Shown here: piece by piece, positions 10,958 through 41,500 of the stretch | Layout: each line of letters starts with the position of its first letter | How positions within the stretch are numbered: the first letter of the stretch is position 1 | From: a virus | IMG/VR virus record: IMGVR_UViG_3300034198_022109 | Location: 1-45,204 of that record | Direction: 5' to 3' (one strand) | Length of the DNA: 45,204 nucleotides | The notes under the pieces: model-generated | What the model saw: the letters and a program-made list of their open reading frames with translations, nothing else | What the model was told of the DNA's origin: nothing | Databases searched by the model: none | Translations under genes and position numbers: made by a program

Positions 10958-13150
10958 ATGTCAGCCCTTCAAGAACTACAGAATTATGTTTTCGTTAGCA
11001 AATATGCCAGATGGTTAGAAGATAAAAATCGCAGAGAAATATGGAAAGAAGCTGTAGATAGGGTTAGAAATATGATGCATACTCGTTATGACTCTTTTGG
11101 TCTCGAACAAGAGATAGATTGGGCATACGACATGATGTACAAAAAGAAAGTTTTAGGTAGTCAAAGAGCATTGCAATTCGGCGGCGAGCCCATATTAAAG
11201 AGACACGCAAAAATATACAATTGCACCAGTTCTTATTGTGATCGTTTGAGATTTTTCCAAGAATGTTTCTGGCTTTTATTGTGTGGTAGTGGAACAGGAT
11301 TTAGCGTTCAAAAGCACCATGTTGCTAAACTTCCAGAACTAGAACATAATGTTCAACCCGGTATAGGAACCAAATATGTAATAGAAGATAGCATAGAGGG
11401 TTGGTCTGATGCTTTAGGTGTCTTGTTAAGTTCTTATTTTAGTGAGCCTATTGAAGAATTTAAGGAATATAAAAATACATATGTTGTATTTGATTATTCT
11501 AATATTCGTCCTAAGGGATCTAGTTTAAGTTCTGGTGTTGGCAAGGCTCCAGGATTTGAGCCTCTTGCTAATGGTCTAGAAAAAATTAGAACACTATTAG
11601 ATCGTTGTATTGCTAATGATCAAAATAAACTCAGACCAATAGACGCCTATGATATAGTAATGCATAGCAGCGATGCTGTATTATCCGGTGGTGTTCGTAG
11701 AAGTGCATCACTAGCATTATTTACTCCTAACGATGAAGAGATGGCAAAAGCTAAAACTGGTAATTGGTATATGGAAAATCCTCAAAGAGCAAGAAGTAAT
11801 AACTCAGCACTGCTTCTCAAAGACGATACTACTTTTGAAGAATTTGATACTCTAATGTCTAGTGTTAAAGAATTTGGAGAGCCGGGATTTATTTGGAGCG
11901 AATCCACTGAGATGATTTTTAATCCTTGCGTGGAAATAGGAATGTGGCCGATTGATGAAGCAAGTGGCAAGAGCGGATGGCAAGGATGTAATTTATCTAC
12001 CATTAATTGTTCTAGCGTAATAGACGAAGAAGATTTTTATGAAAGATGCAGAGCCGCAGCTATTATAGGAACACTACAAGCTGGATTTACTAAATTAGAA
12101 TATTTAGGAGAAACCAGTGAAAAGATTTTTGAAAGAGAAGCACTACTAGGTGTTTCTTTAACTGGTATTATGGAAAAACATGATTTAGTATTAACTGAAA
12201 AAGTTCTTAAGAATGGAGCTAAGATTGCAGTTGATATAAATAAACAAATAGCTAAAATCATTAAGATTAATCAAGCTGCAAGAGTAACTTGCTTAAAGCC
12301 AGAAGGAACCAGCAGTAGTATGCTAGGTACTAGTTCTGGTATTCATCCTCATCATGCAAAGAGATATATTAGACATGTACAGGCCAATATACTAGAAGCC
12401 CCATACCAACACTTCAAAAGAATAAATCCCCAAGCCTGTGAAAAGTCTTCTTGGTCTGCTAATGATACGGACGAAGTAGTTAAGTTTCCTATTGAGGTTC
12501 CGGATGGAGCTAAACTTAAGAATCAATTGCCTGCTATAGAGATGTTGGAGATTGTTAAGAATACTCAAAAAAACTGGGTATATTCTGGCAAAAATAAAAC
12601 ATTATGCACACAAGAGTATCTCAGTCATAACGTTAGTAATACTGTAACTGTCAAATCAGATGAATGGGCTGATGTTACTAAATACATTTATAATAATCGT
12701 AAATATTTTGCTGGGATATCTTTGATTCCACAAAGCGGAGACAAAGACTACCCTCAAGCACCATTTACTACCGTTTACACAAGCAGAGAGATTGTGAAAG
12801 AATACGGAGATGCCTCTTTATGGTGCTCTGGACTTATAGAATTAGGTTTAAATGCTTTTGACAATAATCTTTGGGCAGCTTGTGACTATGTAACATTAAA
12901 TCAGGCTAACAAAGATCACCATGAATCAAAACTAAAATTTGTTACTAAGATGGAAAACTTTGCTAGCAAATACTTTAATGGCGATGTAAGAAGACTAACG
13001 TACTGTATGAAGGATGTCTATAATTGGAAGATATACTGCGATCTGTTCAATAGTTTTAAACGAGTTGATTATACACAACTACTGGAAACAGAGGACAATA
13101 CTGTTGGTATAGAGGAAATTAGTTGTGCTGGCGGTGCATGTCTAATTTAA
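10958..13150 (+). CDS. nrdJ: Class II (adenosylcobalamin-dependent) ribonucleotide reductase
   Basis: A 730-residue reductase close in length to the monomeric Lactobacillus leichmannii ribonucleoside-triphosphate reductase (739). It makes deoxyribonucleotides using B12. Visible marks: NCTSS near residue 88 (active-site Cys), the catalytic Asn-Pro-Cys-Val-Glu at residues 322-326 (thiyl Cys324, Glu326), the loop KPEGTSSSMLGTSSG, and the C-terminal redox pair in CAGGACLI. No small radical subunit or activase is present beside it, as expected for class II, and the enzyme should work with or without oxygen. The start has a strong AGGAG. It relies on host B12. Confidence 0.9.
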   Translation: MSALQELQNYVFVSKYARWLEDKNRREIWKEAVDRVRNMMHTRYDSFGLEQEIDWAYDMMYKKKVLGSQRALQFGGEPILKRHAKIYNCTSSYCDRLRFFQECFWLLLCGSGTGFSVQKHHVAKLPELEHNVQPGIGTKYVIEDSIEGWSDALGVLLSSYFSEPIEEFKEYKNTYVVFDYSNIRPKGSSLSSGVGKAPGFEPLANGLEKIRTLLDRCIANDQNKLRPIDAYDIVMHSSDAVLSGGVRRSASLALFTPNDEEMAKAKTGNWYMENPQRARSNNSALLLKDDTTFEEFDTLMSSVKEFGEPGFIWSESTEMIFNPCVEIGMWPIDEASGKSGWQGCNLSTINCSSVIDEEDFYERCRAAAIIGTLQAGFTKLEYLGETSEKIFEREALLGVSLTGIMEKHDLVLTEKVLKNGAKIAVDINKQIAKIIKINQAARVTCLKPEGTSSSMLGTSSGIHPHHAKRYIRHVQANILEAPYQHFKRINPQACEKSSWSANDTDEVVKFPIEVPDGAKLKNQLPAIEMLEIVKNTQKNWVYSGKNKTLCTQEYLSHNVSNTVTVKSDEWADVTKYIYNNRKYFAGISLIPQSGDKDYPQAPFTTVYTSREIVKEYGDASLWCSGLIELGLNAFDNNLWAACDYVTLNQANKDHHESKLKFVTKMENFASKYFNGDVRRLTYCMKDVYNWKIYCDLFNSFKRVDYTQLLETEDNTVGIEEISCAGGACLI

Positions 13151-18311: not shown

Positions 18312-19787
18312 ATGTCAACAATTTTAGCGGATCCTTCGGCAGAACGTGCTGTATTATCTGGTATTTGCAAGTACGGAGAAGAGGTATATTTAGATATTGC
18401 AGATATTCTACAGGACTCTTCTTTTACGATAGATAGTAATAGTATTATCTTTAAGTGCATTAAGGAGCTTTGCGAGAAACACAACTCTAAAAGAATAGAT
18501 ATTGCTTCTATTTATTCTGTTGCTCAAGAATTGGGTGTTGGTCATGTACTAGCTAGAAAAGATGAAGCACAACACCTAAAGGCCATCCTAGATTTTCCTG
18601 TTCACAAAGAGAATGTGCGAAAATTAGCAGCAAAAATACGTAAACTAGAGATAGCAAGACTCCTTAGAGAACAGCTAGAATTAGCACAAAATAAAATACT
18701 AGAAGTAAATGGCACCGAACCAGTATCATCAATTATTGGCTTGGCTGAAGACAGCATATTTAATTTTACATCACTACTAAGCGATTCCGATAGTGGTCCA
18801 GAAAAAATAGGCTCTGGTATTGAGGAATATGTAAAAGTCTTAGAAGAGAACAAAGTTGATCAAATTGGTATTCCAACAGGCTTTCCTGTTTATGATCAGT
18901 CTATTGGTGGAGGTTTAAGAAAAGGGACGGTCAATGTTATTGCTGCTAGACCAAAAACAGGCAAAACTCTATTGTCTGATAATATGGGTAGGAATATTGC
19001 TGCTAATGGTATTCCTGTTTTAAACATGGATACGGAAATGGCGAAGGAAGATCATATTAATCGTATCTTAGCTATGACAACAGAGATCGAAATTAACGCT
19101 ATTGAAACAGGCAAATTTACTGAAACTCCAGACAAAAAGAATAAGATATCAAAAGCAGTAGAGGAACTTAAAGAGTTAAAACTTTACCATAAGAGTATTG
19201 CAGGTAAACCATTCGAGGATCAACTAGCAATTATGAGAAGATGGCTAGTAAAAGAGGTTGGATTAAATAATGATGGAACAGCTAAGGATTGTGTTATATT
19301 TTATGATTATCTAAAGCTTATGGATAGCACTGGAATGAGTCAAGATATGAAAGAATATCAGGTTCTAGGCTTCATGATGACTGCATTACATAATTTTGCT
19401 GTAAGATATAGAGTGCCTATTGTTGCATTTATACAGTTAAATCGAGATGGTATTACCAAAGAAAGCACAGATACCGCATCTGGTTCAGATAGAATTATTT
19501 GGCTATGTAGTAACTTTAGTATCTTTAAAAGAAAAAGTGACGAAGAAATCGCAGAAGATGGTCCATCAGAAGGTAATAGAAAACTCATTCCTCTCATCAG
19601 TAGACATGGAGGAGGATTGGATGATAATGATTATATTAATTGCTATATGAAGGGTTGGTGTGCTAAGATTACTGAGGGTCGTACTAAACTAGAAATTGCA
19701 AATAATATTCGTAAAGACAAAAAGTCCAACGGATTTAATATTGAAGAAAACGATAATGGCAATACAGAAACAATTCCGTTCGTATAA
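18312..19787 (+). CDS. dnaB: Replicative DNA helicase, DnaB-like
   Basis: A 491-residue helicase with the DnaB layout: an N-terminal helical domain (ADPSAERAVLSGICKYGEEVY, residues 5-25) and a RecA-type core from about 180. Walker A is ARPKTGKTLLS (about residues 214-224). Walker B is VIFYDYLKLM, where the usual Q of DYLQL is K. It unwinds DNA 5' to 3' ahead of the polymerase. The primase gene overlaps its 3' end by 29 bases in another frame, so helicase and primase are probably made in a fixed ratio. Confidence 0.88.
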   Translation: MSTILADPSAERAVLSGICKYGEEVYLDIADILQDSSFTIDSNSIIFKCIKELCEKHNSKRIDIASIYSVAQELGVGHVLARKDEAQHLKAILDFPVHKENVRKLAAKIRKLEIARLLREQLELAQNKILEVNGTEPVSSIIGLAEDSIFNFTSLLSDSDSGPEKIGSGIEEYVKVLEENKVDQIGIPTGFPVYDQSIGGGLRKGTVNVIAARPKTGKTLLSDNMGRNIAANGIPVLNMDTEMAKEDHINRILAMTTEIEINAIETGKFTETPDKKNKISKAVEELKELKLYHKSIAGKPFEDQLAIMRRWLVKEVGLNNDGTAKDCVIFYDYLKLMDSTGMSQDMKEYQVLGFMMTALHNFAVRYRVPIVAFIQLNRDGITKESTDTASGSDRIIWLCSNFSIFKRKSDEEIAEDGPSEGNRKLIPLISRHGGGLDDNDYINCYMKGWCAKITEGRTKLEIANNIRKDKKSNGFNIEENDNGNTETIPFV

Positions 19788-20913
19788 TCAAAATCAACTT
19801 AAGGTAGTTTGCGATAAACTGTGTGATAATATCGAGGAACTATTAGAGTTTCTTGGGATATCTTCTGATATTAAGAATAATGGTAAAATGATGGTGGGCA
19901 AATGTCCTATTCATGACGGAGATAATATTACTGCTTTTAATATTTATCCAGAAGGTGACTATTATAGGGGGAACTGGAAATGCAGAACCCACAATTGCGA
20001 AAAGGTGTTCAAGGCATCTATTATAGGATTCATTAGAGGGGTATTGTCCAATAAGAAATATGGATGGTGCAAGTCGGGAGATCAAACAGTAACTTTTAGA
20101 GAAACCATAGAGTTTGTGGAGGGGTTTTTAGATCATAAAGTAGATGATGTTAAAGTAAACAGGTCCGAGATAGAAAAAGCTAAGTTTGCTAGTATAGTTA
20201 ATAATATTACTGCTCCACAGGACAAGTCTATTGCCACCATCAAACGGAATCAGGTCAGAAAAACATTGAAAATGCCTTGTGAATATTTTATGGGTCGTGG
20301 ATTCTCTAAAGAGATTCTAGATAGATATGATGTAGGATTTTGTAATAATCCCAATAAGGAAATGTTTGGTCGAGCCGTCGTTCCTATATATGATCACGAA
20401 TATAAATATCTGGTAGGATGTACGGCACGAAGCACTTGGGAAAAGTGTAGTGAATGTGGCACCCACCACAATCCAGCAGACCCGTGTCCAAGCACATCAG
20501 AAAAATGGAAATTTTCTAAATGGAAACATAACTATGAATTCAAAAGTCAAAACCATTTGTATAATTTCTGGTTTGCAAAACAGAATATATTAGAAAGTAC
20601 CAAGGTTATTTTAGTAGAAAGTCCGGGTAATGTTTGGAGACTAGAAGAAGCTGGTATACATAACTCTGTGGCTATGTTTGGATCTTCTTTGAGTGATAGG
20701 CAAAAAATCATACTAGACGGATCAGGAGCCATGAATATTATAGTCTTAACAGACAATGATGAGGCTGGACACAAAGCAGCGGAAACTATAAAAGATAAAT
20801 GTAAAAATACCTATAAGGTTAATAGAATAGTTATATCAAAATTAGATGTAGCAGAAATGTCTATTGATGAAATTCAGAATGAGATTAAACCCAAAATAGA
20901 AAGCATTATATGA
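19759..20913 (+). CDS. dnaG: DNA primase, DnaG-like
   Basis: A 384-residue primase; I chose the ATG at 19759 (MAIQKQFRSYNQ) rather than one at 19696, which would need a longer overlap with the helicase gene. The N-terminal zinc-binding region shows CPIHDGDN...KCRTHNC. A Toprim region follows with the acidic residues in VILVESPGNVW and VLTDNDEAGHKAAE. A second Cys/His set (CSECGTHHNPADPC, about residues 233-246) is unusual and may be another metal site. Makes RNA primers with the neighbouring helicase. Confidence 0.85.
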   Translation, partial: AIQKQFRSYNQNQLKVVCDKLCDNIEELLEFLGISSDIKNNGKMMVGKCPIHDGDNITAFNIYPEGDYYRGNWKCRTHNCEKVFKASIIGFIRGVLSNKKYGWCKSGDQTVTFRETIEFVEGFLDHKVDDVKVNRSEIEKAKFASIVNNITAPQDKSIATIKRNQVRKTLKMPCEYFMGRGFSKEILDRYDVGFCNNPNKEMFGRAVVPIYDHEYKYLVGCTARSTWEKCSECGTHHNPADPCPSTSEKWKFSKWKHNYEFKSQNHLYNFWFAKQNILESTKVILVESPGNVWRLEEAGIHNSVAMFGSSLSDRQKIILDGSGAMNIIVLTDNDEAGHKAAETIKDKCKNTYKVNRIVISKLDVAEMSIDEIQNEIKPKIESII

Positions 20914-21497
20914 CTAAGATTATAGCGTTTTCTGGAAGAAAACAATCCGGCAAAAGCACTGCTGGAGAATTTGTCAGTTCTTTTATCGATAATAATAATA
21001 TCACACTATCTCATAAAATATATAGTTTTGCCGACCCATTAAAGCAAGACATATGTATTAATATTTTAGGTATGACCCATACACAATGTTATGGTTCTGA
21101 CGACGATAAAAATACCATGACTGATTTGTTGTGGAACGGCGAAGAACTAACTGCCAGAAGAGCTATGGAGGTTATTGGCACTAATATCTTTAGACAGATT
21201 AAGACTCGGGTTTGGGTGGAAGCTACTCTAAACAAGATATTTAGAGAAAAGTTTGATTTAGCTATTATTGTGGACTGTAGATTTCCTAACGAGTCTGATG
21301 CCATATTAGATAGTGGGGGATACGTTATTAGGCTTGATCTAAATCCTTTTGATTCTGATTCGGATAGTGAAAAGGCTCTAGATCCAGAATATTACGACTG
21401 GTCTAAATTTAGTTATATTATACATAATAGCTATTTGACCAATGAAGAAAAAAATAATAGAATACTCAAATTTTTAACAAGAAACAGAATACTATGA
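20910..21497 (+). CDS. Deoxynucleoside monophosphate kinase
   Basis: A 195-residue P-loop kinase of the type found in T4 (gene 1), which converts dNMPs to dNDPs. The P-loop is AFSGRKQSGKST near residue 8; an Asp-Pro pair in FADPLKQD and the pattern TARRAMEVIGTNIFR...VWVEA are characteristic; a later DCRFPNESDAI fits the substrate and lid region. It fits with dCMP deaminase and ribonucleotide reductase as a nucleotide-supply set. Overlaps primase and nuclease genes (ATGA on both sides). Confidence 0.82.
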   Translation: MTKIIAFSGRKQSGKSTAGEFVSSFIDNNNITLSHKIYSFADPLKQDICINILGMTHTQCYGSDDDKNTMTDLLWNGEELTARRAMEVIGTNIFRQIKTRVWVEATLNKIFREKFDLAIIVDCRFPNESDAILDSGGYVIRLDLNPFDSDSDSEKALDPEYYDWSKFSYIIHNSYLTNEEKNNRILKFLTRNRIL

Positions 21498-22537
21498 TAA
21501 TTACATACCTCCGATCATCTAGCTATGGTACACACTCTATGTGCGAACAGCAATTTTTTATCGAGTATATTCTAGGTCATCGCTCCCCATCCAATAAAAA
21601 GGCTGATAAAGGCACAATTTTCCATAAGGTTATGGAGATATTAGCTTATGTTAAACTTACTCAACAAAACAATAAGAAATCCTTTGTAGACGATATTGTT
21701 GGAGAAGTTAATGTAGACAAATATAATCTTAATACTCTTATAGAAAAAGTTTATTATTATTATACTAGTCGATTTACCCACCATGAATGGGAGGTTAAAG
21801 ACTATAAAGACTGTCATGCGTGGGTTAATAGAGCATTGGAATACAATAATGGTATGTTTGATCCAAGAAACAGCAATATTTTACAGCCAGAACAACATTT
21901 CGATATTGAGATAGTTAAGCCTTGGTCAAAATATAAGTTTGATACTCCAGAAGGTGTTCTGGAAGGACATCTTGCTATTAAGGGAACCATAGACTTAATT
22001 ACTAGGGTGAACGACAACACTATAGAAATTGTTGATTATAAAACTGGTCGTAGATTAGACTGGGCGACGGGACAGGAGAAGACCCTAGAAAAATTACAAA
22101 ACGATCCACAATTAAGAATATACCATTATGCTATTAGTCATCTATATCCAAACATGGAGCATTGTATGGTGTCTATATATTTTGTGAATGATGGTGGTGC
22201 ATTTTCTGTATGTTTTGATAAGCCAGATCTTGCCCAAACCGAAAATATGTTAAGGCAAAAGTTTGAAGTTATAAAGAATAGTCAAAGACCAAAACTAAAT
22301 AAAACATGGAAATGCAATAAGTTGTGTCATTTTGGTAAAAGCACATTTGAGAACTCTAATATACTACCTATTCTCGAATATAGAGACGGACAGGTTTGTG
22401 ATAAAGATAAAACAATGACCAAATGCGAACAAGTTAGACACGATATTGAACTCAAAGGCATGAAGAATGTTGTTGACGAATACACTGTCCAGGGGTATAG
22501 TGTTGGAAAATACAAGGCGCCTGGAAGTGCAGAATGA
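21494..22537 (+). CDS. RecB/Cas4-type PD-(D/E)XK nuclease
   Basis: A 347-residue nuclease of the RecB superfamily. The start SSSYGTHSMCEQQFFIEYILG is typical of the RecB/Cas4 N-terminus. The core is IEIVDYKTGR with Asp181 and Lys183, and the QxxxY motif is in QLRIYHYAI. A Cys near residue 17 plus the late CNKLC and CDKDKTMTKC are placed like a Cas4/AddB Fe-S cluster, which is an inference. A role in DNA end processing for recombination is likely. Coupled to the kinase and the polymerase genes by ATGA. Confidence 0.8.
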   Translation: MIITYLRSSSYGTHSMCEQQFFIEYILGHRSPSNKKADKGTIFHKVMEILAYVKLTQQNNKKSFVDDIVGEVNVDKYNLNTLIEKVYYYYTSRFTHHEWEVKDYKDCHAWVNRALEYNNGMFDPRNSNILQPEQHFDIEIVKPWSKYKFDTPEGVLEGHLAIKGTIDLITRVNDNTIEIVDYKTGRRLDWATGQEKTLEKLQNDPQLRIYHYAISHLYPNMEHCMVSIYFVNDGGAFSVCFDKPDLAQTENMLRQKFEVIKNSQRPKLNKTWKCNKLCHFGKSTFENSNILPILEYRDGQVCDKDKTMTKCEQVRHDIELKGMKNVVDEYTVQGYSVGKYKAPGSAE

Positions 22538-24414
22538 AAAACTATATACCTCTACATTGTCATTCTATGTACTCTTTGCTAGATGGCCTTAGTAAGTCTT
22601 CTAAAATAGCCGAGAGATGTGTAGAAATTGGAGCTAGTGCCTGCGCCTTAACGGATCACGGCAATATAGCAGGATCTGTTAAGTTCTTTAAAGAGATGAA
22701 GTCTGTGGGGGTAAAGCCTATATTGGGGTGTGAGCTTTATCTATGTGATCAAAACGTGGAAATCAAAGATAAGTCTAATAAAGAATTGACCCATTTTATT
22801 GTATTGGCCAAAAACCTCAAAGGGTGGCAAAATCTCATTCGTTTAGTCTCAGAGTCCAACAGGCCAGACTTTTATTATCACAAGCCTAGACTAACGCTAG
22901 AGGCCCTAGCAGAGTTTTGTGATGGCAATATGCTTGGAATGTGCGGTCACCTGGGATCATTATTAGCCGATCAAATAGTTGACAATAATCAGATAAATCC
23001 AGACTGGAAAAATATCGGTGTCGAAAAGATTGGTAAATTAAAAGATATCTTTGGGGCAGAGAATTTTATTCTTGAGGCTCAGTTGATGGATTGTGATAAT
23101 ACTCCTATACAAAAGCAATTAACGGATGTTGTTAGGGCTTTGGGTAAGTATACGAATACTACAGTGGTATGTACTCCGGATGCCCATTATGTTAGAAAAG
23201 AAGATGCTTCCGATCAAAGAATTCTTTTATGTAACAATCTAAAGACCACAATGCCGGAAATTAGTAGAAAAATTAATAACAACGATCCACTGCCTATGGG
23301 TTGTTTTTTTACTTCGGATAATTTTCATATACTTTCTCAGGAAGAAATGAGTTCTTTACACACGGAGGAGGAAATAGAAAATACTAATATAGTAGCAGAT
23401 ATGTGTGAGGAATATGATATTACTAGTAGACCCAGACTTCCTCCTTTTGGGTGTGAATCTCCAGACGAATATCTTAGACAATTATGTAGAGATGGTTGGA
23501 GACAAAAGATACAAGATCGTATACCAAAAGAACAACAAGATCAATATGTTGAAAGAATTAAGTATGAGCTAGGAGTATTACAGGGGGCTGGCTTATCTAG
23601 TTATTTTTTAATTGTACAAGATATTGTCAATTATGTGAGATCAAACGATTGGCTACCTGGACCAGGAAGAGGTTCTGCTGCCGGATGTTTGGTATCTTAT
23701 TTAATTGGTATCACGGGTATTAATCCGCTACAATATGGTTTAATTTTTGATAGATTTTATAACTCTGGTCGTAACACCAAGGACCGAGTAAGTATGCCAG
23801 ATATTGATGTGGACGTTCCAATTAACAAAAGAGAAAATGTAATATCCTACATTAAAAATAAGTATGGGGATAGTCAGGTTTCTCAAATGGTTACGTTTAA
23901 TACCATTAAGGGTCGCGGAGCAATTAAGGATGTTCTTAGAGTGTATGGCAATATTAGTTTTGATGAAATGAATAATATTACTAGAAACATACCAGATGAA
24001 GCTAAAATTGCAGACGAATTACAAGAGATGAAGGATGAGACTGGAGACGCATCTATCATACGATGGGCATTAGAAAATCAAGCAGATAAGCTAAAAGAAT
24101 GGTGTTATATTGATGAAAATAATGAATTACAAGGACCTCTTGCCAAACGTTTTGAACAGGCTATAAGATTAGAGGGCACAAAGGTTAATCAGTCAAAACA
24201 CGCTGCTGGCGTTGTTATCGCTGATAGCGACCTTGCCACCATCTGTCCTATGATATATGACTCTAAAACAAAAACAAGGATTGCCGGAATGGAAATGGAA
24301 GACCTTGAATCCATTGGTGTGGTAAAGTTCGACATTCTTGGCGTGGCTATGTTAGATAAAATCATGTTCATTTCCGAATATCTTAAGAAGGGGGTTTCTA
24401 ATGAAATTTCATGA
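22534..24414 (+). CDS. dnaE: DNA polymerase III alpha subunit, N-terminal piece (PHP and palm)
   Basis: A 626-residue half of a bacterial-type replicative polymerase. The PHP domain begins LHCHSMYSLLDG; the palm shows GPGRGSAAGCLVSYLIGIT (about 376-394), the catalytic Asp423 and Asp425 in PDIDVDV, and the third Asp600 in VVKFDILGV. These match E. coli DnaE residues 401, 403 and 555. The protein stops soon after Asp600, so the fingers are missing; these are encoded by the gene at 25262. No intein blocks are seen at its end. The two proteins must join to form an active polymerase. Confidence 0.92.
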   Translation: MKNYIPLHCHSMYSLLDGLSKSSKIAERCVEIGASACALTDHGNIAGSVKFFKEMKSVGVKPILGCELYLCDQNVEIKDKSNKELTHFIVLAKNLKGWQNLIRLVSESNRPDFYYHKPRLTLEALAEFCDGNMLGMCGHLGSLLADQIVDNNQINPDWKNIGVEKIGKLKDIFGAENFILEAQLMDCDNTPIQKQLTDVVRALGKYTNTTVVCTPDAHYVRKEDASDQRILLCNNLKTTMPEISRKINNNDPLPMGCFFTSDNFHILSQEEMSSLHTEEEIENTNIVADMCEEYDITSRPRLPPFGCESPDEYLRQLCRDGWRQKIQDRIPKEQQDQYVERIKYELGVLQGAGLSSYFLIVQDIVNYVRSNDWLPGPGRGSAAGCLVSYLIGITGINPLQYGLIFDRFYNSGRNTKDRVSMPDIDVDVPINKRENVISYIKNKYGDSQVSQMVTFNTIKGRGAIKDVLRVYGNISFDEMNNITRNIPDEAKIADELQEMKDETGDASIIRWALENQADKLKEWCYIDENNELQGPLAKRFEQAIRLEGTKVNQSKHAAGVVIADSDLATICPMIYDSKTKTRIAGMEMEDLESIGVVKFDILGVAMLDKIMFISEYLKKGVSNEIS

Positions 24415-24577
24415 AGTCGCGGTTGGTGAAATATTTAAGTTCAATAATCAAGAATATGTAAAGATTCCAGAAGTAAGAGTTAGTTGCTGTAAGATTCAGC
24501 AAAATGCCCAAATATTAGGTAGTGAGGAAAAGGTTGTTCTCAAACCTTTAGATGAAGTAGAAAAGATTATTAAATAA
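24401..24577 (+). CDS. Small protein inside the split polymerase locus
   Basis: A 58-residue protein (MKFHEVAVGEIFKFNNQEYVKIPEV...) starting inside the end of the polymerase N-piece gene, with the ribosome site AAGGGGG placed eight bases before it, and ending one base into the exonuclease gene. Phage small proteins of the form MKFxxVxVGxxFxxNGxxYxK are widespread with no known role. It could be a small regulator of, or linker for, the polymerase pieces. Confidence 0.7.
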   Translation: MKFHEVAVGEIFKFNNQEYVKIPEVRVSCCKIQQNAQILGSEEKVVLKPLDEVEKIIK

Positions 24578-25272
24578 TGCTAAGTAAAAAAATATGCGTA
24601 TTTGATATGGAAACAGATGGCTCGGACCCAAATTTTTGTAGTCCGGTCCAAATATCTGCTGTGATAGTCGATCCAGTAAAACTGGAAGTTGTACCTGGTT
24701 CAGAATTTAATATTTTCTGTAAGCCAGAAGTAATGGAAGAAACGGCAGATTATAAGTATGAAACAGATATTTTAAGTTTTCATGCCAAGGTACGTGGATG
24801 CTCAGAAGAGGAGATCTATAAACAATGGCAAGAATATCCTGCTCAAGAAGTTGCTTGGAAGTCTTTTGTATCATATTTAGAAAAATACCACTGTTTTGGA
24901 GGCAAGAAAAAGAGTATGTTTTCTGCTCCAATCGCCGCTGGTTATAATATACATAGATTCGATCTAAAAATAGTAAATAGGCTTTGTCTTAAGTATAAAA
25001 ACTATGAACCAAAAGAGAAGAATAGTAATATTTTTCATCCTAGGGACGTTTTGGATATTATGAACTTGGTTTTTTATTGGTTTGAAAGCACTAACCTGAA
25101 AAGCTATTCATTAGATAGTATTAGAGAATATATGGGTATATCCAAAGAGGGCGCTCACGATGCTTTAAAAGATGTGCAGGATTGCGCAAAAATATTGATT
25201 AGATTTTTAAAGCTTCATAGAAATCTTTCTCAGAAGGTTAAATTTAAGGATTCTTTTATAAATGACAATTAA
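24577..25272 (+). CDS. dnaQ: DnaQ-like 3'-5' proofreading exonuclease
   Basis: A 231-residue DEDDh-family exonuclease. ExoI is DMETDG with Asp10 and Glu12; ExoII is in NIHRFDLKI; ExoIII has His194 and Asp199 in HDALKDVQD. It would proofread for the polymerase pieces on both sides of it. Placement between the two halves, with overlaps at both ends, makes a physical complex probable. It has no polymerase or PHP part. Confidence 0.87.
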   Translation: MLSKKICVFDMETDGSDPNFCSPVQISAVIVDPVKLEVVPGSEFNIFCKPEVMEETADYKYETDILSFHAKVRGCSEEEIYKQWQEYPAQEVAWKSFVSYLEKYHCFGGKKKSMFSAPIAAGYNIHRFDLKIVNRLCLKYKNYEPKEKNSNIFHPRDVLDIMNLVFYWFESTNLKSYSLDSIREYMGISKEGAHDALKDVQDCAKILIRFLKLHRNLSQKVKFKDSFINDN

Positions 25273-26866
25273 TTTTGACTGCGGATGCTCATTTCCTACC
25301 CAAAAGGTATCTGGTCTACTATCTATAGATTTTGATATTAGTCAGATTAATTTTGAGTGTCCTAAAACTTGGGAACTAATATCATCTGGTAATACTAAGG
25401 GGTGTTTTCAGCTAGAGTCTCGTTTGGGACAAAGTATGTCCAAGAAACTCATGCCAGAAAATATAGAGCAATCATCTGCTTTAATTAGCATTATGAGACC
25501 GGGGTGTTTGGAAGCTGTTCGTGATGGTAAAACAGTTAGTAACCATTATATAGACAAAAAGAATGGTCTAGAGTCTGTAGATTATTTCCATAAGTCATTA
25601 GAGCCTGTTTTAAAAAATACTTATGGCGAAATGGTATATCAAGAACAAGCTATGGAAATAACCAAAGAGATTGCTGGGTTTGATCTACAAGAAGCAGATA
25701 TGCTTAGAAAAGCTATTGGCAAGAAAAAGCCAGAAGAAATGGCCAAGGTTAAATCAAGATTTTTAGAGGGTACAAAACATCTTGGTATAGTAACAAACGA
25801 TGAGGCAGAACAGATATTTGGATGGATTGAAAAAAGTCAAAGATATTCATTTAATAAATCACATGCTATAAGTTACGCTGTTAATGGATACATATCTGCT
25901 TATGCTAAAGCACATTTCCCGAAGATCTTTTTTTTATCATATTTGCGTCTAGCAAAAGATAAAATAGATCCTCAACAAGAAATCTCGGAGCTGATTAGCA
26001 ATGCTAGAGATATGGATATTGGTGTGTTTGGTCCTAGCCTTAGACTTAAAAATAAAGAGTTTGAGATAGTTGATACAAAGATATATTTTGGGCTTACTAA
26101 TATCAAAAACGTAGGAGAGTCTGTTTATGCAAAGCTTATTGTATTACTAGATAAGTATGATTTGTCAAAGATGTCTTGGATAGAGATATTAACTAAGATA
26201 TTAGTGAATATTAATTCGGCCGCTGCGAAATCTCTTATTTTATCAGGAGCTATGGATTATCTGAAAATTAGTCGTAATAAAATGGTATTTGATCTGAACC
26301 TAATTAGTGAACTAACAGCTAGAGAATTAGAGAAGTGTTTAGAAATACTAAATGATGGAAATACAAAAGACCTAACTAGTCTTTTAAGACGTTTACTAGA
26401 AAAAACTAAAATTACCAAAAATAGACAACCAAAGATATTAAGCATAATTAATCAAACAATAAATCCTCCGTATTCTTTAGTTGATGAACCAGAATGGATT
26501 TCAAATAATGAAAGAGACTTACTTGGCGTATCTATTACAATTACAAAAACAGATCTGTATGACTCATCTTATGCAAATACGGATTGTAAAGATCTTAAAA
26601 CATTTCCCAACAATAAGCAGTTTTTTATTGTGGCAGAAATAGCTGATATGAGCGTGATTGTGACAAAACGTGGAAAAACTCCGGGACAGGAAATGTGTTT
26701 TTTGAGACTTTCTGATTCATTTGGCAGTTTAGATTCTATTGTATTATTTCCAGAAGAGTTTGCACAGTACAAGGATCTATTAGAGGCGGGACGAGTTTTA
26801 ATGTTTAATGGCCAAAAGTCTGGCAAGAACAGTACGCCAGTGGTTAAAAAGTGTTTCGTTGTTTAA
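25262..26866 (+). CDS. dnaE: DNA polymerase III alpha subunit, C-terminal piece (fingers, thumb and OB domain)
   Basis: A 534-residue protein. After a short N-terminal segment (INFDCGCSFP) it continues the alpha subunit where the N-piece stops: GCFQLESRLGQSMSKKLMP, IMRPGCLEAVRDGK, MVYQEQAMEI, GKKKPEEMAKVKSRFLEGTK and YSFNKSHAISYA. A C-terminal OB-like domain (FFIVAEIADMSVIV...FLRLSDSFGSLDSIVLFPEEF) is present. With the N-piece the total is about 1160 residues, the length of E. coli DnaE. The YSFNKSH site, where cyanobacteria have their split intein, is intact here. Confidence 0.92.
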   Translation: MTINFDCGCSFPTQKVSGLLSIDFDISQINFECPKTWELISSGNTKGCFQLESRLGQSMSKKLMPENIEQSSALISIMRPGCLEAVRDGKTVSNHYIDKKNGLESVDYFHKSLEPVLKNTYGEMVYQEQAMEITKEIAGFDLQEADMLRKAIGKKKPEEMAKVKSRFLEGTKHLGIVTNDEAEQIFGWIEKSQRYSFNKSHAISYAVNGYISAYAKAHFPKIFFLSYLRLAKDKIDPQQEISELISNARDMDIGVFGPSLRLKNKEFEIVDTKIYFGLTNIKNVGESVYAKLIVLLDKYDLSKMSWIEILTKILVNINSAAAKSLILSGAMDYLKISRNKMVFDLNLISELTARELEKCLEILNDGNTKDLTSLLRRLLEKTKITKNRQPKILSIINQTINPPYSLVDEPEWISNNERDLLGVSITITKTDLYDSSYANTDCKDLKTFPNNKQFFIVAEIADMSVIVTKRGKTPGQEMCFLRLSDSFGSLDSIVLFPEEFAQYKDLLEAGRVLMFNGQKSGKNSTPVVKKCFVV

Positions 26867-26945: not shown

Positions 26946-27311
26946 ATGAATATTGTGTTACTAAAAGGAAATCTAACTCGTGACCCTGAACTACGAGTTG
27001 TTAACAGCGGCGAGAAGCAAACTTCTGTTGTTTCATTTACCGTTGCTGTATCCAAGGACTTTACAAGAGCAAACGGAACTCGGGATAAGATTGTTTCGTA
27101 TATTCAGTGTGAAGCGTGGGATAGTGGGGCCGAAGTAATCGGTTCTTCTTTCCGCAAGGGCGATCTAGTAATGATCGAAGGAAGTTTGCGTAACGATAGT
27201 TGGGAAAAGGATGGTGTTAAGCATTCTACACTCAAGGTAAGAGTGAATAATTTTTCCAAAGTAACTAAGATAAAGAAGCAAGAATCAGTAGAAGAAACAG
27301 TTGCTTTCTAA
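26946..27311 (+). CDS. ssb: Single-stranded DNA-binding protein
   Basis: A 121-residue OB-fold protein: MNIVLLKGNLTRDPELRVV, VSFTVAVSKDF, YIQCEAWDSGAEVI and KGDLVMIEGSLRNDSW are the usual SSB blocks. The C-terminal tip is acidic and ends in a hydrophobic pair (EETVAF), like the DDDIPF tip of bacterial SSB that recruits partners. It has its own strong promoter, a good AAGGAG site and a terminator, so it is expressed as a separate transcript, with codon and base use more GC-rich than its neighbours. Confidence 0.92.
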   Translation: MNIVLLKGNLTRDPELRVVNSGEKQTSVVSFTVAVSKDFTRANGTRDKIVSYIQCEAWDSGAEVIGSSFRKGDLVMIEGSLRNDSWEKDGVKHSTLKVRVNNFSKVTKIKKQESVEETVAF

Positions 27312-34526: not shown

Positions 34527-37500
34527 TTAGGGAGAACCAGAGGGTGGTATACCAGAATTTGCTTCGTCACAAGTTGCAACCTCAATAATATCAGACTCAG
34601 CATCTTGTCCTTCTACGAAAATATGTACTTTTTTCTTTTTAAACTCTAGTCCATTATCACCTAAAGCCGCTTCATATATCATTTCCTCTTTGTTCACTTT
34701 CCACCACTTTGCACACCCATTTTCATTCACTAACACTTCAACACTGTCTCCCATTGTAATATCTTTTAGGGCGGACTCTGCATCAAATTCAGAGGCTATC
34801 AAACCAGCATCCATAGAGTCATCACAATTTCCACCAAATCCAATAACAATATGAAAAGATAATCCTATATCTGCAATCACACACCAAGTTTCTGATCCAT
34901 CTTTAGGTTTAACTTTTCTCAAAAGATTCAATGCTTTTACTGGCTCATATTCTGCGTCCCCCTCTAAATTAGCTTTCTGAGGATTTGTTTTATGATCAAC
35001 ACCATCAACATCTTTTACTTTATATGCATTTACTGTTTTAGCTTGATCCTTACCCCATTCCCCCGTATATTTTGCTATCTTAATAACACTACCACCACCT
35101 TTAGGTATTGCTAAATATTTATCATCATTATATACAGCATAAATTAATTCACCACTAGGAATAGTAACTTTATCTAAAAAGTTATAGACCGTAATATATT
35201 GATCCTCTATGTTATCCATGATGGATTCTCCAAACGACCCCCAAACATTATAATTAGAATGAAAGGACGGGTCTGCATTACCTGGTTCACAATCGGGTGG
35301 CATTAGAGTATTATTTACTAAGTAAGCCGTAGCACATCCCTCAGCTTTAAGTTCCCCGTCTAATTTAGCTAATAATATTCTATCAGGAGGAGGACAAACC
35401 CACACACCCCGATCTCTATCAAATCTTAGATCTACTGGACCCACAGGCCATGTCTCAGGTTTGGATAGCCAATGATACATAAATCTATCTTTAAGGTTTT
35501 CGTGTTCAAATTCACCCACAGCGGCTTTGTTTGGATTATCTACCCAGTTTGGGATAGGCTTGTTCTCGGTATCATACCCCCAAGCCTGTAATACTAATGG
35601 ACCTCTTAGAGAATAAAAGCCAAAGTCTGTTTCGTTATCATATTTATTTTTAATATCACCACCATAAATATCTTCATCTACAGTATTAGTTCCAAATCCA
35701 AGAACCTGAATAGTAGTACTATTAGGCGCTATTACTCTATTTTGCCACTCACTCAACATACTAGCACTCAGAATAGGATTTAAAAACGTTTGATTAATAG
35801 GAAAAGCATTTGCCTCATCATTTTGTTCGTTATTTAATGGAGGCATAGATGGTCGAGTTTTCCTAGATAAATTACCCCTCTCATATTTAAAATTAACCAT
35901 ATATCTAGGTAAAGAACCACCACGACCTTTAATAGAAACGGGGGTGAATAATCCATCCAAAGACATAATAGCTAACTTTTGAAAGTTGTCGCCCTGTATA
36001 GATGTTTCATATTCTTTTTTCGAATTAAGTCCAATTTCTATAACGTTTATTTCGTTATCAACACCAATATTACTATGATAGCCACCAACTAATACATTTC
36101 CAGGAGAAGCAGTATTGAGGTTGGATCTGTTGTCAAAAGCATTGATAGAAGTAGACTTGCTAAAAGAGCTTCTCATACTATTTACTAATGCTAAAGTTCT
36201 ACGTCTTTGTTCTTTAGCAAATGTAAAAATTTCATTTCTAGCTTTCATAGACTTTTGTACATTATCAGACAAAGCCTTGCCGTACTGTCCAAATTTTGAA
36301 CTATAGCTTTGAAAATTATAGCTTGTTGTAGCCCCACCACTATTATAATTTACATTAATACTATTAATAACAACACCAGCGCTTAAAAAGTACTGAATAC
36401 TATAACCTGGTGGTTCTACAAGAGTCATACTTCCTGATTCTGTTTTATTTGCTACTCTTAGCGCATTACCTGCTAATGCTTGTCCTACAGTATTCATAAC
36501 CCTCTCATTACCATAGTTCCAAGGACTTAGATTTGTCTGAAGTACCTCTGTAGATCCTATTGCTCCTGCGCTAGATGTCCAAGGACCATAAACATAAACA
36601 TTACTTTTCATGGGAATACTAGCAAAATCAAAACCTGCTGTAGCAAAGCCCATTTTGTATATATTAGAGCTAGTAATATCACTATAGCCAATGTTTCTTT
36701 GTTCCATGTTCTTGAGTGTTCCTTCATCCATCAAACAAGCAAGTGCTGTGAGACCGAACGAAAGCAAATTCTCGTTTAATCTGGGAGTCATTCCGATTAA
36801 TGGAGTAGTAATTAAAACCTCTGCTTGTCTACCATTTCTATATACTCTTCCTGCATCAGTATCAATTTTAATATAAGCTAAATTACCTTTAATAAAAAAG
36901 TCTCCAGAAAGTCCGTCCGGACTCAGCCTAAAAGGAATATCTTTGCCATATATATTACGAGATATAGATTCTGATACGGGTACCACAATAAAACCACTAA
37001 GCTTATTATCAGAAGACTCAAAAATAGTAGTATCTATCCCATAGGTTAATCCTAATAAATTAGCTTGATTAGGCCAACCAGCATCTACCGGAAAATCAGA
37101 TAAATAATAAGAACCACCCTCAGATACCACATTACTAGTTGCGGCAGGATAAACGCAAAAAGAATTAATGGGTATAAGCCATTTCCTACCATACCATTCA
37201 CTAATCCACGAGCTAAACCATTCGTATGCCATATTATATAATACTGCTTTTGGTGATTTAGCAGCAAATCTGGGGGATCTATTTAAGGTGTTAAGATCGG
37301 ATGCTGCTTGATCATTCCCTGCTTGTTGTAGTCTCTGGAAAGCCTGAAGAACAGTTTTCATATTTTGAGCAATACCTAGTTTTTTTTGCAAAAGTGCGGA
37401 TAAGCTATTGGGTTGGATAGTGCCATATAATTTCCATAATTCTACCGAACCAGCACATAAAATCTCTTGCTCCTCTACAGGAAACTCGCGTGGCAAAGCA

Positions 37501-38534
37501 ATATTTGCTAGTATACCCATACTATCAGCTAAAGGAGATATATTAATATAAGCTCTAAAATTAGGACCAACAGCTCTATTTGGTTCACCAGCAGGATCAT
37601 AACCAAGCATCAAGGTTGGCGTTACGGATGCTCTGGGTCTGGTTCTTACAGTGGTCATATAGCTAACTTTTTCGCCAACAACTACTCTATTAGAATTTTC
37701 ATATAATTCTTCTTCTCCTATTTCTCCAGATAACAGGGTTCCATTATTTTGAGCAGTATCAATAATTTGTCTTATTAAACCAAAACTAGGCTGTATTGTT
37801 CTATCTATAGTCCAAACCGTAATGGTCGAACCCTCTAAGGTCACAGTAAAATCACAGGCTCCCTCATCGCAAGCTTGAGATATTAAACTTAGTAATGAAG
37901 CACTAGATGCCTCGGTAACAGCATAAAATGGACACGCAGCAAGTACATTGCCTAAATTCAATGTTAGTGGCTCTCCTATGGTAGTATAAACTGTTGAGGT
38001 TCTCTGTATAGCCTGAAGAGCAGATACTAAATTGGTTCCATTGTCACCACCTGATCTAGCGAAATTTACACAACTACCTATTCTTGGCCAGTTTTGTGTG
38101 TCTATTCCGGGAGGACAAACAGCAACTCCTCTCTCTAGTATAGATGCTACATTAATAAAATTAGGTGCTTCCAAAGGACAATAGTAATCTTTTAGCATCA
38201 CGGATACATTTTCTAAAATTTTACGAGGATCTATAATTTTAAATTTATATGAGAACCCATTACTAGTTTCAGAATATGTGCGACTATTAATAATTCCACC
38301 AAAAGATAGTTGTCCACAAGAGAATCTTACAGCACGACCTATAGGTGGTATGGTAATACCATTGGAACCTCCGCAATTATCGTAAACTAATTCTAGATCT
38401 AAATTTGAAGATGAAGACCCTATACCAAGAGTTAAACTAAAATTACTTAGCTTGATATTTCCAGCTATTACAGGTCCTCCCTGTACATATGTAAAAGATA
38501 TTGGAGTATTAATATTTTGGCATATAGTGGTCAT
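34527..38534 (-). CDS. Large virion/baseplate-hub-like protein (1335 aa)
   Basis: A 1335-residue protein on the minus strand. The first ~110 residues (ISFTYVQGGPVIAGNIKLSN... and LSFGGIINSRTYSE...YKFKIIDPRKIL) look like the beta-rich start of a tail hub or baseplate protein (gpD/gp27-like folds), with FGGIINS...IDPR as the marker. The remainder is long, Asn/Ser/Gly-rich and beta-rich with no enzyme motif. It ends in an acidic and Pro/Gly tail (ESDIIEVATCDEANSGIPPS). Likely a virion protein; the exact place is not clear. It lies two bases after the next upstream gene on that strand. Confidence 0.72.
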   Translation of the reverse strand: MTTICQNINTPISFTYVQGGPVIAGNIKLSNFSLTLGIGSSSSNLDLELVYDNCGGSNGITIPPIGRAVRFSCGQLSFGGIINSRTYSETSNGFSYKFKIIDPRKILENVSVMLKDYYCPLEAPNFINVASILERGVAVCPPGIDTQNWPRIGSCVNFARSGGDNGTNLVSALQAIQRTSTVYTTIGEPLTLNLGNVLAACPFYAVTEASSASLLSLISQACDEGACDFTVTLEGSTITVWTIDRTIQPSFGLIRQIIDTAQNNGTLLSGEIGEEELYENSNRVVVGEKVSYMTTVRTRPRASVTPTLMLGYDPAGEPNRAVGPNFRAYINISPLADSMGILANIALPREFPVEEQEILCAGSVELWKLYGTIQPNSLSALLQKKLGIAQNMKTVLQAFQRLQQAGNDQAASDLNTLNRSPRFAAKSPKAVLYNMAYEWFSSWISEWYGRKWLIPINSFCVYPAATSNVVSEGGSYYLSDFPVDAGWPNQANLLGLTYGIDTTIFESSDNKLSGFIVVPVSESISRNIYGKDIPFRLSPDGLSGDFFIKGNLAYIKIDTDAGRVYRNGRQAEVLITTPLIGMTPRLNENLLSFGLTALACLMDEGTLKNMEQRNIGYSDITSSNIYKMGFATAGFDFASIPMKSNVYVYGPWTSSAGAIGSTEVLQTNLSPWNYGNERVMNTVGQALAGNALRVANKTESGSMTLVEPPGYSIQYFLSAGVVINSINVNYNSGGATTSYNFQSYSSKFGQYGKALSDNVQKSMKARNEIFTFAKEQRRRTLALVNSMRSSFSKSTSINAFDNRSNLNTASPGNVLVGGYHSNIGVDNEINVIEIGLNSKKEYETSIQGDNFQKLAIMSLDGLFTPVSIKGRGGSLPRYMVNFKYERGNLSRKTRPSMPPLNNEQNDEANAFPINQTFLNPILSASMLSEWQNRVIAPNSTTIQVLGFGTNTVDEDIYGGDIKNKYDNETDFGFYSLRGPLVLQAWGYDTENKPIPNWVDNPNKAAVGEFEHENLKDRFMYHWLSKPETWPVGPVDLRFDRDRGVWVCPPPDRILLAKLDGELKAEGCATAYLVNNTLMPPDCEPGNADPSFHSNYNVWGSFGESIMDNIEDQYITVYNFLDKVTIPSGELIYAVYNDDKYLAIPKGGGSVIKIAKYTGEWGKDQAKTVNAYKVKDVDGVDHKTNPQKANLEGDAEYEPVKALNLLRKVKPKDGSETWCVIADIGLSFHIVIGFGGNCDDSMDAGLIASEFDAESALKDITMGDSVEVLVNENGCAKWWKVNKEEMIYEAALGDNGLEFKKKKVHIFVEGQDAESDIIEVATCDEANSGIPPSGSP

Positions 38535-38536
38535 AG

Positions 38537-41500
38537 TTAATAATTTTCTTTTGTAACGAATAATCTATTGGCGTATGAGAAAAATTCTATAATTTGTGTA
38601 ATAGAGGTATTCTTATCTATAATAACCCTATATTCATTTTGATACAAGTTTTTATTTTTTAAGTCTTCTGTTTCTCCTATTATCTTATAAATTCCTGGTA
38701 CAACATTAATAAAATTAGTATCTCCAATGAAAGCATATTGATAGTTTTTAGGACCATACAGAATACACTTAGTATTAGTAGGAAATACTTTAACTACTAA
38801 AGAACTTGTATTAGATGTATCTTTAGAAATTTCCACTATCGGAATATTATTGGTATTATTGGGTTGTGGCAAATTGGGTGGGATTGGAGATACTGGACTA
38901 GGATCGAGCGGAGCTGGAGCATTTTCTTCCGGATTCAATATTGGAATATAGATTAGAATATCGCCATAAAGAAAATCATTAATAATATTAGAATTAATCT
39001 GTTGAATAATTTGTTGACTTTTTACAAAGTGTTCATCATATGTAACTATAGAACTATTTTCATATATAATAGAATTTGGGGAATTATTATAGTTATCTTT
39101 AATTCTAGCAATGACATATCTAGAGTCTATACCTCCCAAAACACCAACATTTTTAACTTCTTGATTATTCAGAACAAATTTAGATATATGATTACTTTTT
39201 TGGTCAAATGTAAAATATTCTGTAGTATAGCTATTCTCTACATTCCCATTTTCTGTTAAGATAGACGTAGCAATATTAGCAAAACAATTTAATTGCCCAG
39301 TAGAAGTTATATTTTTAGCATTAAATAAATAGATATTACCAATATTATTCCAATTATTAATAGTAACTAATAAGTTTTTGATATTTACCAAATACTTATA
39401 GTCTTCGGGCAATGTGTTACAGGCAGTTTGGGATATCGTTACGTATTCATTTAATATACTCATATTTTCTAAGAAATTAATGGCTGTTACTATACCTGCA
39501 TTATAGATATTTCTTAGTTGTGTTTTTTTAATATTTTCTATAGTAAAATCATTTTTCGCTTCACCAATATCGTTCACACCCACAGAAATGTTAGCGGAAA
39601 AACCACTAATTAAGTCTGGAAAAGTCACCCCATTTAGTAGTATGCTTCCTCTAATCAAACTCGGATGATCTTGCTCTAACTGACCATCTTCAGACAAGCC
39701 CAAAACAATATCGAACAAAACTGAACCGTCGATGGTTCCGATTTTGATACTGGCTCCCATAAATTCTGGGTTAGTGGTTAAGTTAATTGATGGGGCGATA
39801 TACAGATAGAAATACCAGTCTAAGGATGTATTACCAAGTTTTAATATTTCAATTTTATTTTCATCTAAACAATATTTATCTAGCATAGTTCTTACAACTC
39901 TAAATTCATATCTTTCATTATTGATATAAATATAAATATAATCTTTAAGATTATAGTTTTTAATAAGCTGCCATAATTCTGAATTATTCTGAATATAGTG
40001 ATATGGTATTAAAAGAGTATCAAAAATATCTAAACTTAATAATGGACTATTAATAATGATTGGGTTATCGGGAATGACAGATATGTTAACAGACATTGCT
40101 TGTGCGTTAGGTATCGTTATATTCTCCACGATACTACATCCTTTATTATCTATAATAATTGCTTCATATTCACCAGGGGTTAATAAATCGTAAATTTTAT
40201 ATGAATATGTATGATCAGATTTACTAACTAGATATTTGGTGTCAAATGCTGGTATTTCTATGCGTTCTCCGGTATCTTTTATAAAAATCATAGAAAATGG
40301 TAGTTTACATGTGACAGATAGATTGAGTATACCGAAGGAATCTAGTAGTGTCGGGGCATAAATATTATTAATAGTGGCTTCTAGAATATTATCCTCTATA
40401 ACAACTGTTGTGGGAAACAGAATAACAGTATTTGTGCTATCAATAACTACAATATCATAGTCTCCAGCAGCTAATCCCGTAAACTTGTGGTTGCGATCAG
40501 ATGTAGTGAATGAGATAGATCCTATAGTATATCTGAAAGGTGGTAATCCACCACCTATACTAATAGATATATTTCCATTATTTCCGCAGTTACTATCCGC
40601 AAATGATACTTTGTCAATATATACCTGAGGCTGTATATCTAATGATGAGACATTATTTGATAAATTTGGATCAGTTAATCCAGATACTATTGGCAAACTA
40701 ATATAACTATCTATTTCTATTGGATATATAATCCCACTATCCGCAATACTATCTATTCCATAAATAGCATATCCACTACTAGCTAAATAAAAGCTACTAT
40801 TAATATTTCCTGATCCCCCAACCGGTCCATTACCACTAACATAAGCCGCCCCCCATCTAAGATTAGAAATTCCTGTTGGAATATATGAGATTAGATTAAT
40901 GCCACTTACAGCATTAGGACTATTATTATTGACTATTATATTATAAGTTAATCTTTGTCCATCTTTATAAAATGAGTCTCCGCTCATACTGACTGAAATA
41001 TCCACAGGAGATAAATTAATAGGAGTATTAATATATACGTTATTATTTTCATCACTATCTGTGAGAGGATTTTGTGGAGATACTGTTGCAGTAATTCTAA
41101 GAGGCTCTAAACTAGCAACACTGGGAATATATGAAATTTGAAAAGTAGCCGAACCACTATTTGCTAAATTTATTCCACTAGTAATAAGATTTCCAACACC
41201 AGACATAGGACCAGAGCTACCACTACTATAGACAGACGACCAATTAAGAGCAGAATATGAGGCTCCACTAAAAGATACATTTAATTGAGTAGACGGACTA
41301 TATTGACCTGTATTTTGAATTTCTACTACGACAGGTATTGGTAGTTTTTGAGTATAGGTGGATGGGGCAGATACGCTTACTTTTAAGTCCGTTGGTCTGA
41401 TAGTTGTGACTAATGATGAAGTATTATTGGATAGATCTGTATCTGATATACCAGAAGGCATTATCAACTCAGCATTAAGTATCAAATTTTGTATGGTTGT

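What the first reader, a model, noticed from the sequence alone, without database searches (positions are those of the whole stretch)
22534..26866. DNA polymerase III alpha subunit split in two genes, with a DnaQ-like exonuclease and a 58-aa gene between the halves
Direct reading: the N-piece (626 aa) ends about 26 residues after the third catalytic Asp (Asp600), and the C-piece (534 aa) starts with the fingers (GCFQLES). Together they give about 1160 residues, the size of E. coli DnaE, with all motifs present. The break is not the cyanobacterial split-intein site, because YSFNKSH in the C-piece is intact, and no intein blocks or intron are seen. All genes overlap by 1-14 bases, so the layout looks selected rather than decayed. 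It implies a polymerase built from two chains with a separate proofreading subunit, perhaps joined by the small protein.
Basis: partly seen in the sequence, partly recalled or inferred. Interest (0 to 1): 0.78.

Follow-up and report, generated by a model that had tools for sequence, protein, structure and literature searches.

The report
Phage replicase split into two genes
A large group of uncultivated phages makes its only DNA-copying enzyme, a bacterial-type DNA polymerase III alpha, as two separate proteins cut exactly between the catalytic palm and the fingers, with the gene for a proofreading enzyme lodged between the two halves; the cut is old, kept by selection and has arisen independently in at least one other phage group.

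Summary
In detail: PHP-palm-thumb (626 aa), a 58-aa protein, a DEDDh exonuclease (231 aa) and fingers-HhH-OB (534 aa) lie in four overlapping genes. It is neither an error nor decay. Every relative recovered from IMG/VR or MAG contigs (214 loci passing length criteria; 101 non-redundant; down to 38% identity) has the same split, always with the exonuclease between the halves; none is single-chain. Polymerase and exonuclease catalytic residues are invariant in the 101. In 14 long relatives (53-233 kb) this is the only polymerase: one fingers domain, no PolA, PolB or beta clamp. Although not adjacent, N and C show the most congruent histories of six neighbouring genes. No intein or intron lies at the break, though both are detected in relatives that carry them. 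Best explanation: a two-chain DnaE replicase with a separate proofreader. The same cut recurs in mycobacteriophages Cuke, Fowlmouth and MrMiyagi, whose 68%-identical relative Indlulamithi is single-chain, and in Rossellomorea phage phiT1. The 58-aa protein is not a general linker: it is often replaced or absent and looks like a common small SH3-like phage barrel. Split Pol III alpha has precedents, so this is a new variant. Physical assembly is untested.

The parts
22534..24414 (+). DnaE N-piece, 626 aa: PHP domain + palm/thumb; catalytic D423, D425, D600, GRGS motif 378-381
   Evidence: PHP 7-183 and DNA_pol3_alpha 312-603; palm residues invariant in 101 relatives
24401..24577 (+). 58-aa small protein (S58), predicted small SH3-like barrel; conserved C29-C30; not universal in the clade
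   Evidence: pLDDT 95.8; weak Foldseek match to EF-P domain I; many small phage proteins
24577..25272 (+). DnaQ-like DEDDh 3'-5' exonuclease, 231 aa (D10, E12, D129, H194, D199)
   Evidence: (phrog_192 'DNA polymerase exonuclease subunit' 3.8e-24); always between N and C in the clade
25262..26866 (+). DnaE C-piece, 534 aa: lineage-specific head (C7, C9, C33), fingers, HhH, weak OB region; no room for tau-binding CTD
21494..22537 (+). PD-(D/E)XK nuclease, conserved neighbour upstream of N
26946..27311 (+). single-stranded DNA-binding protein, conserved neighbour downstream of C
19756..20913 (+). Toprim (DnaG-like) primase, replication module
20910..21497 (+). deoxynucleotide monophosphate kinase
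18312..19787 (+). DnaB-like helicase

Best explanation
The phage replicase is a C-family (DnaE) polymerase made as two polypeptides. The N chain carries the PHP domain, the thumb and the whole catalytic palm. The C chain carries the fingers, the HhH region and an OB-like region. A third chain, a DEDDh exonuclease encoded between them, supplies proofreading. The four genes overlap, so they are probably co-translated and assemble non-covalently by the same palm-fingers contacts that hold one-chain DnaE together (inferred). The break sits at a domain boundary that appears to tolerate cutting, since the same cut arose separately in other phages. Shown: the anatomy, antiquity and universality of the split in the clade, invariant active sites, purifying selection, absence of inteins/introns at the split, absence of another phage polymerase, and N-C phylogenetic congruence. 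Inferred: physical assembly, exonuclease partnership and activity.
For: Same split and intervening exonuclease in every clade locus found by searching with C alone; 101 non-redundant members with minimum C identity 38%. Palm D423/D425/D600, R379-G380-S381, fingers R149/K154/K155/H201 and exonuclease catalytic residues are invariant apart from one gapped exonuclease. dN/dS about 0.04-0.09 for N and C where dS is measurable. One fingers domain per genome and no PolA, PolB or beta clamp in 14 long relatives. Among six genes N-C has the highest distance correlation (0.83), most shared strong splits (25) and few conflicts (5 of 38), versus 17 of 33 for adjacent PDDEXK-N and 13 of 38 for N-EXO. Same cut in Cuke, Fowlmouth, MrMiyagi and phiT1, cultured phages; single-chain sisters Indlulamithi and Butterscotch.
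Against: No complex model could be made: the tool folds single chains only, and the one attempt on C without an alignment was meaningless (pLDDT 35). No biochemistry exists. Congruent histories show joint inheritance, not contact. The exonuclease is less congruent with N (13 of 38 strong splits in conflict), so its partnership is less certain than N-C.
Confidence: 0.86

Rival explanations
1. The halves are joined after translation by a split intein, or at RNA level by a trans-spliced or removed intron, so the working enzyme is one chain as in cyanobacteria.
For: Split inteins with homing endonucleases, cis inteins and LAGLIDADG genes do occur elsewhere in this polymerase in relatives, and split DnaE inteins are classical in cyanobacteria (PMC3919608).
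Against: N ends 12-26 residues after the third Asp with no intein block and C starts with its own conserved head; Pfam finds no intein here but does in L050 and L021; no Rfam intron in the window, while L191 is detected as a control; the intervening exonuclease is itself a conserved gene.
Confidence: 0.04
2. Decayed or mis-assembled dnaE; the phage uses the host polymerase.
For: No sliding clamp is encoded in long relatives, so some dependence on the host is likely; a few relatives carry broken N ORFs (L058, L092).
Against: Identical split in 101 non-redundant members from many samples, invariant active sites, purifying selection, conserved replication module, no other phage polymerase.
Confidence: 0.03
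3. N and C act as independent proteins with new roles (for example N as a PHP nuclease), not as one polymerase.
For: PHP metal ligands are largely kept: H8, H10, D17, H42, E67, H87, H139, D216 and H218 in most of 101 members.
Against: Palm aspartates in N and the fingers motifs in C are both invariant, which neither half would need alone; N and C are the most congruent pair of genes.
Confidence: 0.05
4. Two-chain polymerase in which the 58-aa protein is an obligatory linker subunit of the halves.
For: Present at this place in 81 of 101 members by BLAST, conserved C29-C30 and confident fold; small SH3-fold proteins next to phage polymerases are reported for group 1 jumbo phages (PMC7824862).
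Against: Replaced by an unrelated 71-aa protein in the L176 group, and no room for it in about five members (N-EXO gap -23 to 54 nt), which keep the split; similar small phage proteins are widespread.
Confidence: 0.08

Closest known systems
Two-gene DnaE of mycobacteriophages Cuke, Fowlmouth and MrMiyagi (annotated in the records, not discussed in any paper found here)
   Same: Cut at the same palm/fingers boundary; 601 + 477 aa in Cuke, 4-nt overlap
   Different: No gene between the halves, no exonuclease there; about 25-28% identical; a recent independent split, since the 68% relative Indlulamithi is single-chain
Two-gene DnaE of Rossellomorea phage phiT1 (gp20/gp19/gp18)
   Same: Same boundary, with a 49-aa gene between halves of 573 and 469 aa
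   Different: No exonuclease between, unrelated small gene, no CGC head; outside the clade in the tree but with weakly resolved placement
Split minimal Pol III alpha of group 2.2 jumbo phages (Iyer et al. 2021, PMC7824862)
   Same: Pol III alpha made as two proteins thought to reconstitute the enzyme
   Different: As described there: minimal, without the other Pol III domains, genes far apart, alongside a family B polymerase; here PHP-bearing, one operon, only polymerase
Cyanobacterial split DnaE with split intein (cited in PMC3919608)
   Same: dnaE in two genes
   Different: Halves are ligated by protein trans-splicing at the YxFNKSH site (own knowledge); here that site is intact and no intein is found
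E. coli Pol III core alpha-epsilon
   Same: DnaE plus separate DEDDh exonuclease
   Different: alpha is one chain with a C-terminal tau-binding domain; here two chains without it

Membership tests
C-family DNA polymerase III alpha (DnaE) | PHP domain followed by Pol-beta-like palm with three Asp | tested here: met
C-family DNA polymerase III alpha (DnaE) | fingers domain and HhH region | tested here: met
C-family DNA polymerase III alpha (DnaE) | OB fold after the HhH region | tested here: inconclusive
   PF01336 hit below its curated cut-off (18.1 vs 27 bits)
C-family DNA polymerase III alpha (DnaE) | all domains in one polypeptide | tested here: not met
   two ORFs in the window and in all clade members
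C-family DNA polymerase III alpha (DnaE) | polymerase activity | not testable with these tools
   needs purified chains
DnaQ-like DEDDh exonuclease | D-x-E, N..D and H....D catalytic motifs | tested here: met
   invariant in 101 relatives apart from one gapped sequence; PF00929 and phrog_192
DnaQ-like DEDDh exonuclease | binding to the PHP domain of the polymerase | not testable with these tools
   conserved C-terminal F223 and F227 only
Split-intein DnaE (cyanobacterial type) | intein halves at the break | tested here: not met
   positive controls in L050 and L021
Split-intein DnaE (cyanobacterial type) | break inside the YxFNKSH region | tested here: not met
   YSFNKSH intact at C 195-201
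Split minimal Pol III alpha of jumbo phages (PMC7824862) | no PHP or other Pol III domains; distant genes; co-resident PolB | tested here: not met
   PHP present, one operon, no PolB in 14 long relatives
Two-gene DnaE of Cuke/Fowlmouth and phiT1 | break at the palm/fingers boundary | tested here: met
Two-gene DnaE of Cuke/Fowlmouth and phiT1 | common descent of the split | tested here: not met
   tree: Cuke/Fowlmouth nested with single-chain phages (support 1.0), our clade monophyletic (0.80); phiT1 outside the clade but placement poorly supported

The most novel reading that the evidence does not exclude
A distinct replicase architecture: an obligate N-exonuclease-C hetero-oligomer in which the exonuclease, made between the halves, helps bring palm and fingers together, so that polymerisation and proofreading assemble as one step, in a widespread phage lineage with no other polymerase and no clamp of its own.
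Probability: 0.25. Interest if true: 0.75.

Novelty: new variant of a known kind. Interest (0 to 1): 0.56.

Why it matters
Replicative DnaE is nearly always one chain; even in cyanobacteria the two genes are spliced back into one protein. A whole phage lineage that apparently runs on a permanently two-chain DnaE gives a natural test of whether palm and fingers can work as separate subunits, and the repeated cut at the same boundary marks a natural module junction. It also offers a ready-made split polymerase, and Cuke versus Indlulamithi gives a cultured before/after pair in which to test the cost or benefit of splitting.

Tried and rejected
Sequencing or assembly frameshift: rejected, same split in 101 non-redundant relatives. 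Intein or intron at the break: rejected, with positive controls. Zinc site shared between the C-head cysteines and the 58-aa protein's CC: no support, because members lacking the C-head cysteines (L106-L111) keep the 58-aa protein and vice versa. MAG labels as host evidence (Chitinophagia, Flavobacteriales, Alphaproteobacteria, Lokiarchaeota): inconsistent, probably mis-binned phage contigs. Structure of C from a single sequence: pLDDT 35, discarded. Search for a single-chain member at the edge of the clade (L176 and L279 queries): none found; nearest single-chain phages are about 33-35% identical. Literature: no paper describing this layout was found in the held library, which lacks most subscription journals.

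Full report
What is there. N (22534-24414, 626 aa) holds a PHP domain and the Pol III alpha palm/thumb region; C (25262-26866, 534 aa) holds the fingers, an HhH region and a weak OB hit; between them lie a 58-aa gene (24401-24577) and a DEDDh exonuclease (24577-25272). phmmer places the end of N at E. coli alpha residue 574 and the start of C at 584, just after the palm and at the start of the fingers (domain limits from own knowledge of the E. coli alpha structure). GCFQLES is at C residue 47, behind a head with conserved cysteines. There is no room for the tau-binding C-terminal domain. The window is an IMG/VR virus record of 45,204 bases, a fragment to judge from relatives of up to 233 kb.

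Not an error, not decay. Searching IMG/VR with C alone gave 217, 497 and 170 relatives in three scans, the best 80 of each being fetched, and 149 matches in GTDB genomes, most of them ordinary cellular DnaE. Every locus of this clade has N and C as separate ORFs with the exonuclease between them. After length filtering 214 loci remain, 117 with distinct C, 101 at 95% non-redundancy, with minimum pairwise C identity 38%. Primase, nuclease and SSB are also conserved neighbours. In the 101, the palm aspartates D423, D425, D600, the GRGS motif, the fingers residues R149, K154, K155 and H201 and the exonuclease D10, E12, D129, H194 and D199 are invariant except for one gapped exonuclease; most PHP metal ligands are also kept. 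Synonymous sites are near saturation while dN is 0.04-0.28, so dN/dS is well below 0.2 for all four genes.

Only polymerase. In 14 long relatives (53-233 kb) there is one DnaE fingers domain each and no PolA, PolB or bacterial beta clamp, with working controls. The records may be incomplete, but fourteen concordant absences argue that the split enzyme is the phage's replicase and that it works without a clamp or with the host's.

N and C behave as one unit. For 65 loci with six intact genes, trees of primase, nuclease, N, exonuclease, C and SSB were compared. N-C has the highest distance correlation (0.83), the most shared strongly supported splits (25) and few conflicts (5 of 38). Nuclease and N, which are adjacent, conflict in 17 of 33; N and the exonuclease conflict in 13 of 38. 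Genes in this region thus recombine, yet the two polymerase halves keep together across the gene between them. This is evidence for functional coupling, not proof of contact.

No splicing at the break. N ends within about 12-26 residues of the third Asp and C starts with its own conserved head. No intein is detected in either piece, nor an Rfam intron in the window. The methods do detect such elements where present: a split intein with a nuclease gene between its halves at RG|S381 (L050, L045, L154), cis inteins with HNH at RPG|C82 of C (L021, L329), and a group II intron in a Clostridiales dnaE (L191).

The small protein. AlphaFold2 with 54 homologues gives a confident small barrel (pLDDT 95.8); Foldseek matches are weak but point to EF-P domain I (SH3-like), and many small uncharacterised phage proteins look alike; PHROG matches are to families of unknown function. 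It is missing or replaced by an unrelated 71-aa protein in several members. It is therefore an accessory at most, not a required linker.

The same cut elsewhere. Mycobacteriophages Cuke, Fowlmouth and MrMiyagi have two adjacent genes (601 + 477 aa in Cuke, 600 + 463 aa in the others) with a 4-nt overlap; Indlulamithi (68% identical in N) and Butterscotch are single-chain, and the tree nests the split pair with them at support 1.0: an independent and recent event. Rossellomorea phage phiT1 has 573 | 49 | 469 aa at the same boundary; it falls outside the clade but its placement is poorly supported, so independence is probable rather than shown. Other phages cut dnaE elsewhere: PHP/palm in LittleFella, Potty and Send513, and between GRGSAAG and PDID in PhiSepi-HH3, Satyr, Jayan and CB457P2.

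Mechanism. Most likely N and C fold separately and assemble non-covalently into a DnaE active site, the exonuclease joining as epsilon does in E. coli. Overlapping genes suggest balanced, local synthesis. Assembly, activity and the exonuclease's partner are inferred.

Comparison and novelty. Iyer et al. 2021 (PMC7824862) reported a minimal split Pol III alpha in jumbo phages (distant genes, alongside PolB, without the other Pol III domains); cyanobacterial split DnaE is spliced back together. The present system is PHP-bearing, is the only polymerase found, is encoded in one operon and is ancient in its clade: a new variant of a known kind. No description of it was found in the held literature. 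Interest is moderate to fairly high because cultured phages with the same cut make a direct test possible.

Noticed in passing
L050 2056-5145, L045 2038-5114, L154 2053-5113 (also L051, L115, L147, L164): Fractured-gene split intein inside the N-piece at GRG|S381, the active-site GRGS motif, with a free-standing, probably PD-(D/E)XK-like endonuclease gene between the intein halves; the polymerase of these phages would come from three genes.
   Followed up: partly
L021 6001-8340, L020 4145-6484, L329 6001-8391: Cis-splicing intein with HNH domain in the C-piece at RPG|C82, in distant members of the clade.
   Followed up: partly
L175 3230-4081; L295-L304: LAGLIDADG endonuclease gene interrupting the palm just before the PDID motif; no group I intron reached Rfam's threshold.
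   Followed up: partly
L061 3581-4564, L062 3794-4867, and contigs of L092 and L093: DUF1559 (PF07596) prepilin-like genes in relatives, a family typical of Planctomycetota (own knowledge): a hint that hosts of at least part of the clade are Planctomycetota.
   Followed up: partly
L191 5119-7940: Chromosomal dnaE of a Clostridiales MAG interrupted by a group II intron with reverse transcriptase immediately after the third palm Asp.
   Followed up: partly
window 25262-25360 (C residues 7, 9, 33): Lineage-specific head of the C-piece with a CGC motif and a third Cys replacing the usual Asp of the IPLDD motif; perhaps a metal site; absent in 6 of 101 members.
   Followed up: partly
window 38537-43822 (-): 1761-aa protein with FGE-sulfatase-like and CARDB/DUF11 repeat domains, and a 1335-aa protein without Pfam match next to it (34527-38534), both on the minus strand.
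   Followed up: no
window 10958-13150: Divergent B12-dependent ribonucleotide reductase-like protein; its Pfam hits sit at or just below the curated cut-offs.
   Followed up: no
L082, L084, L171; L085-L088: Cultured phages cut dnaE at two further recurrent places: PHP/palm, and between GRGSAAG and PDID; Send513's N-terminal half is annotated as a sliding clamp, apparently wrongly.
   Followed up: partly
L058 3205-4933; L092 3403-5137: N-piece ORFs broken by deletion or frameshift in two contigs whose near-identical relatives are intact; probably assembly errors.
   Followed up: no
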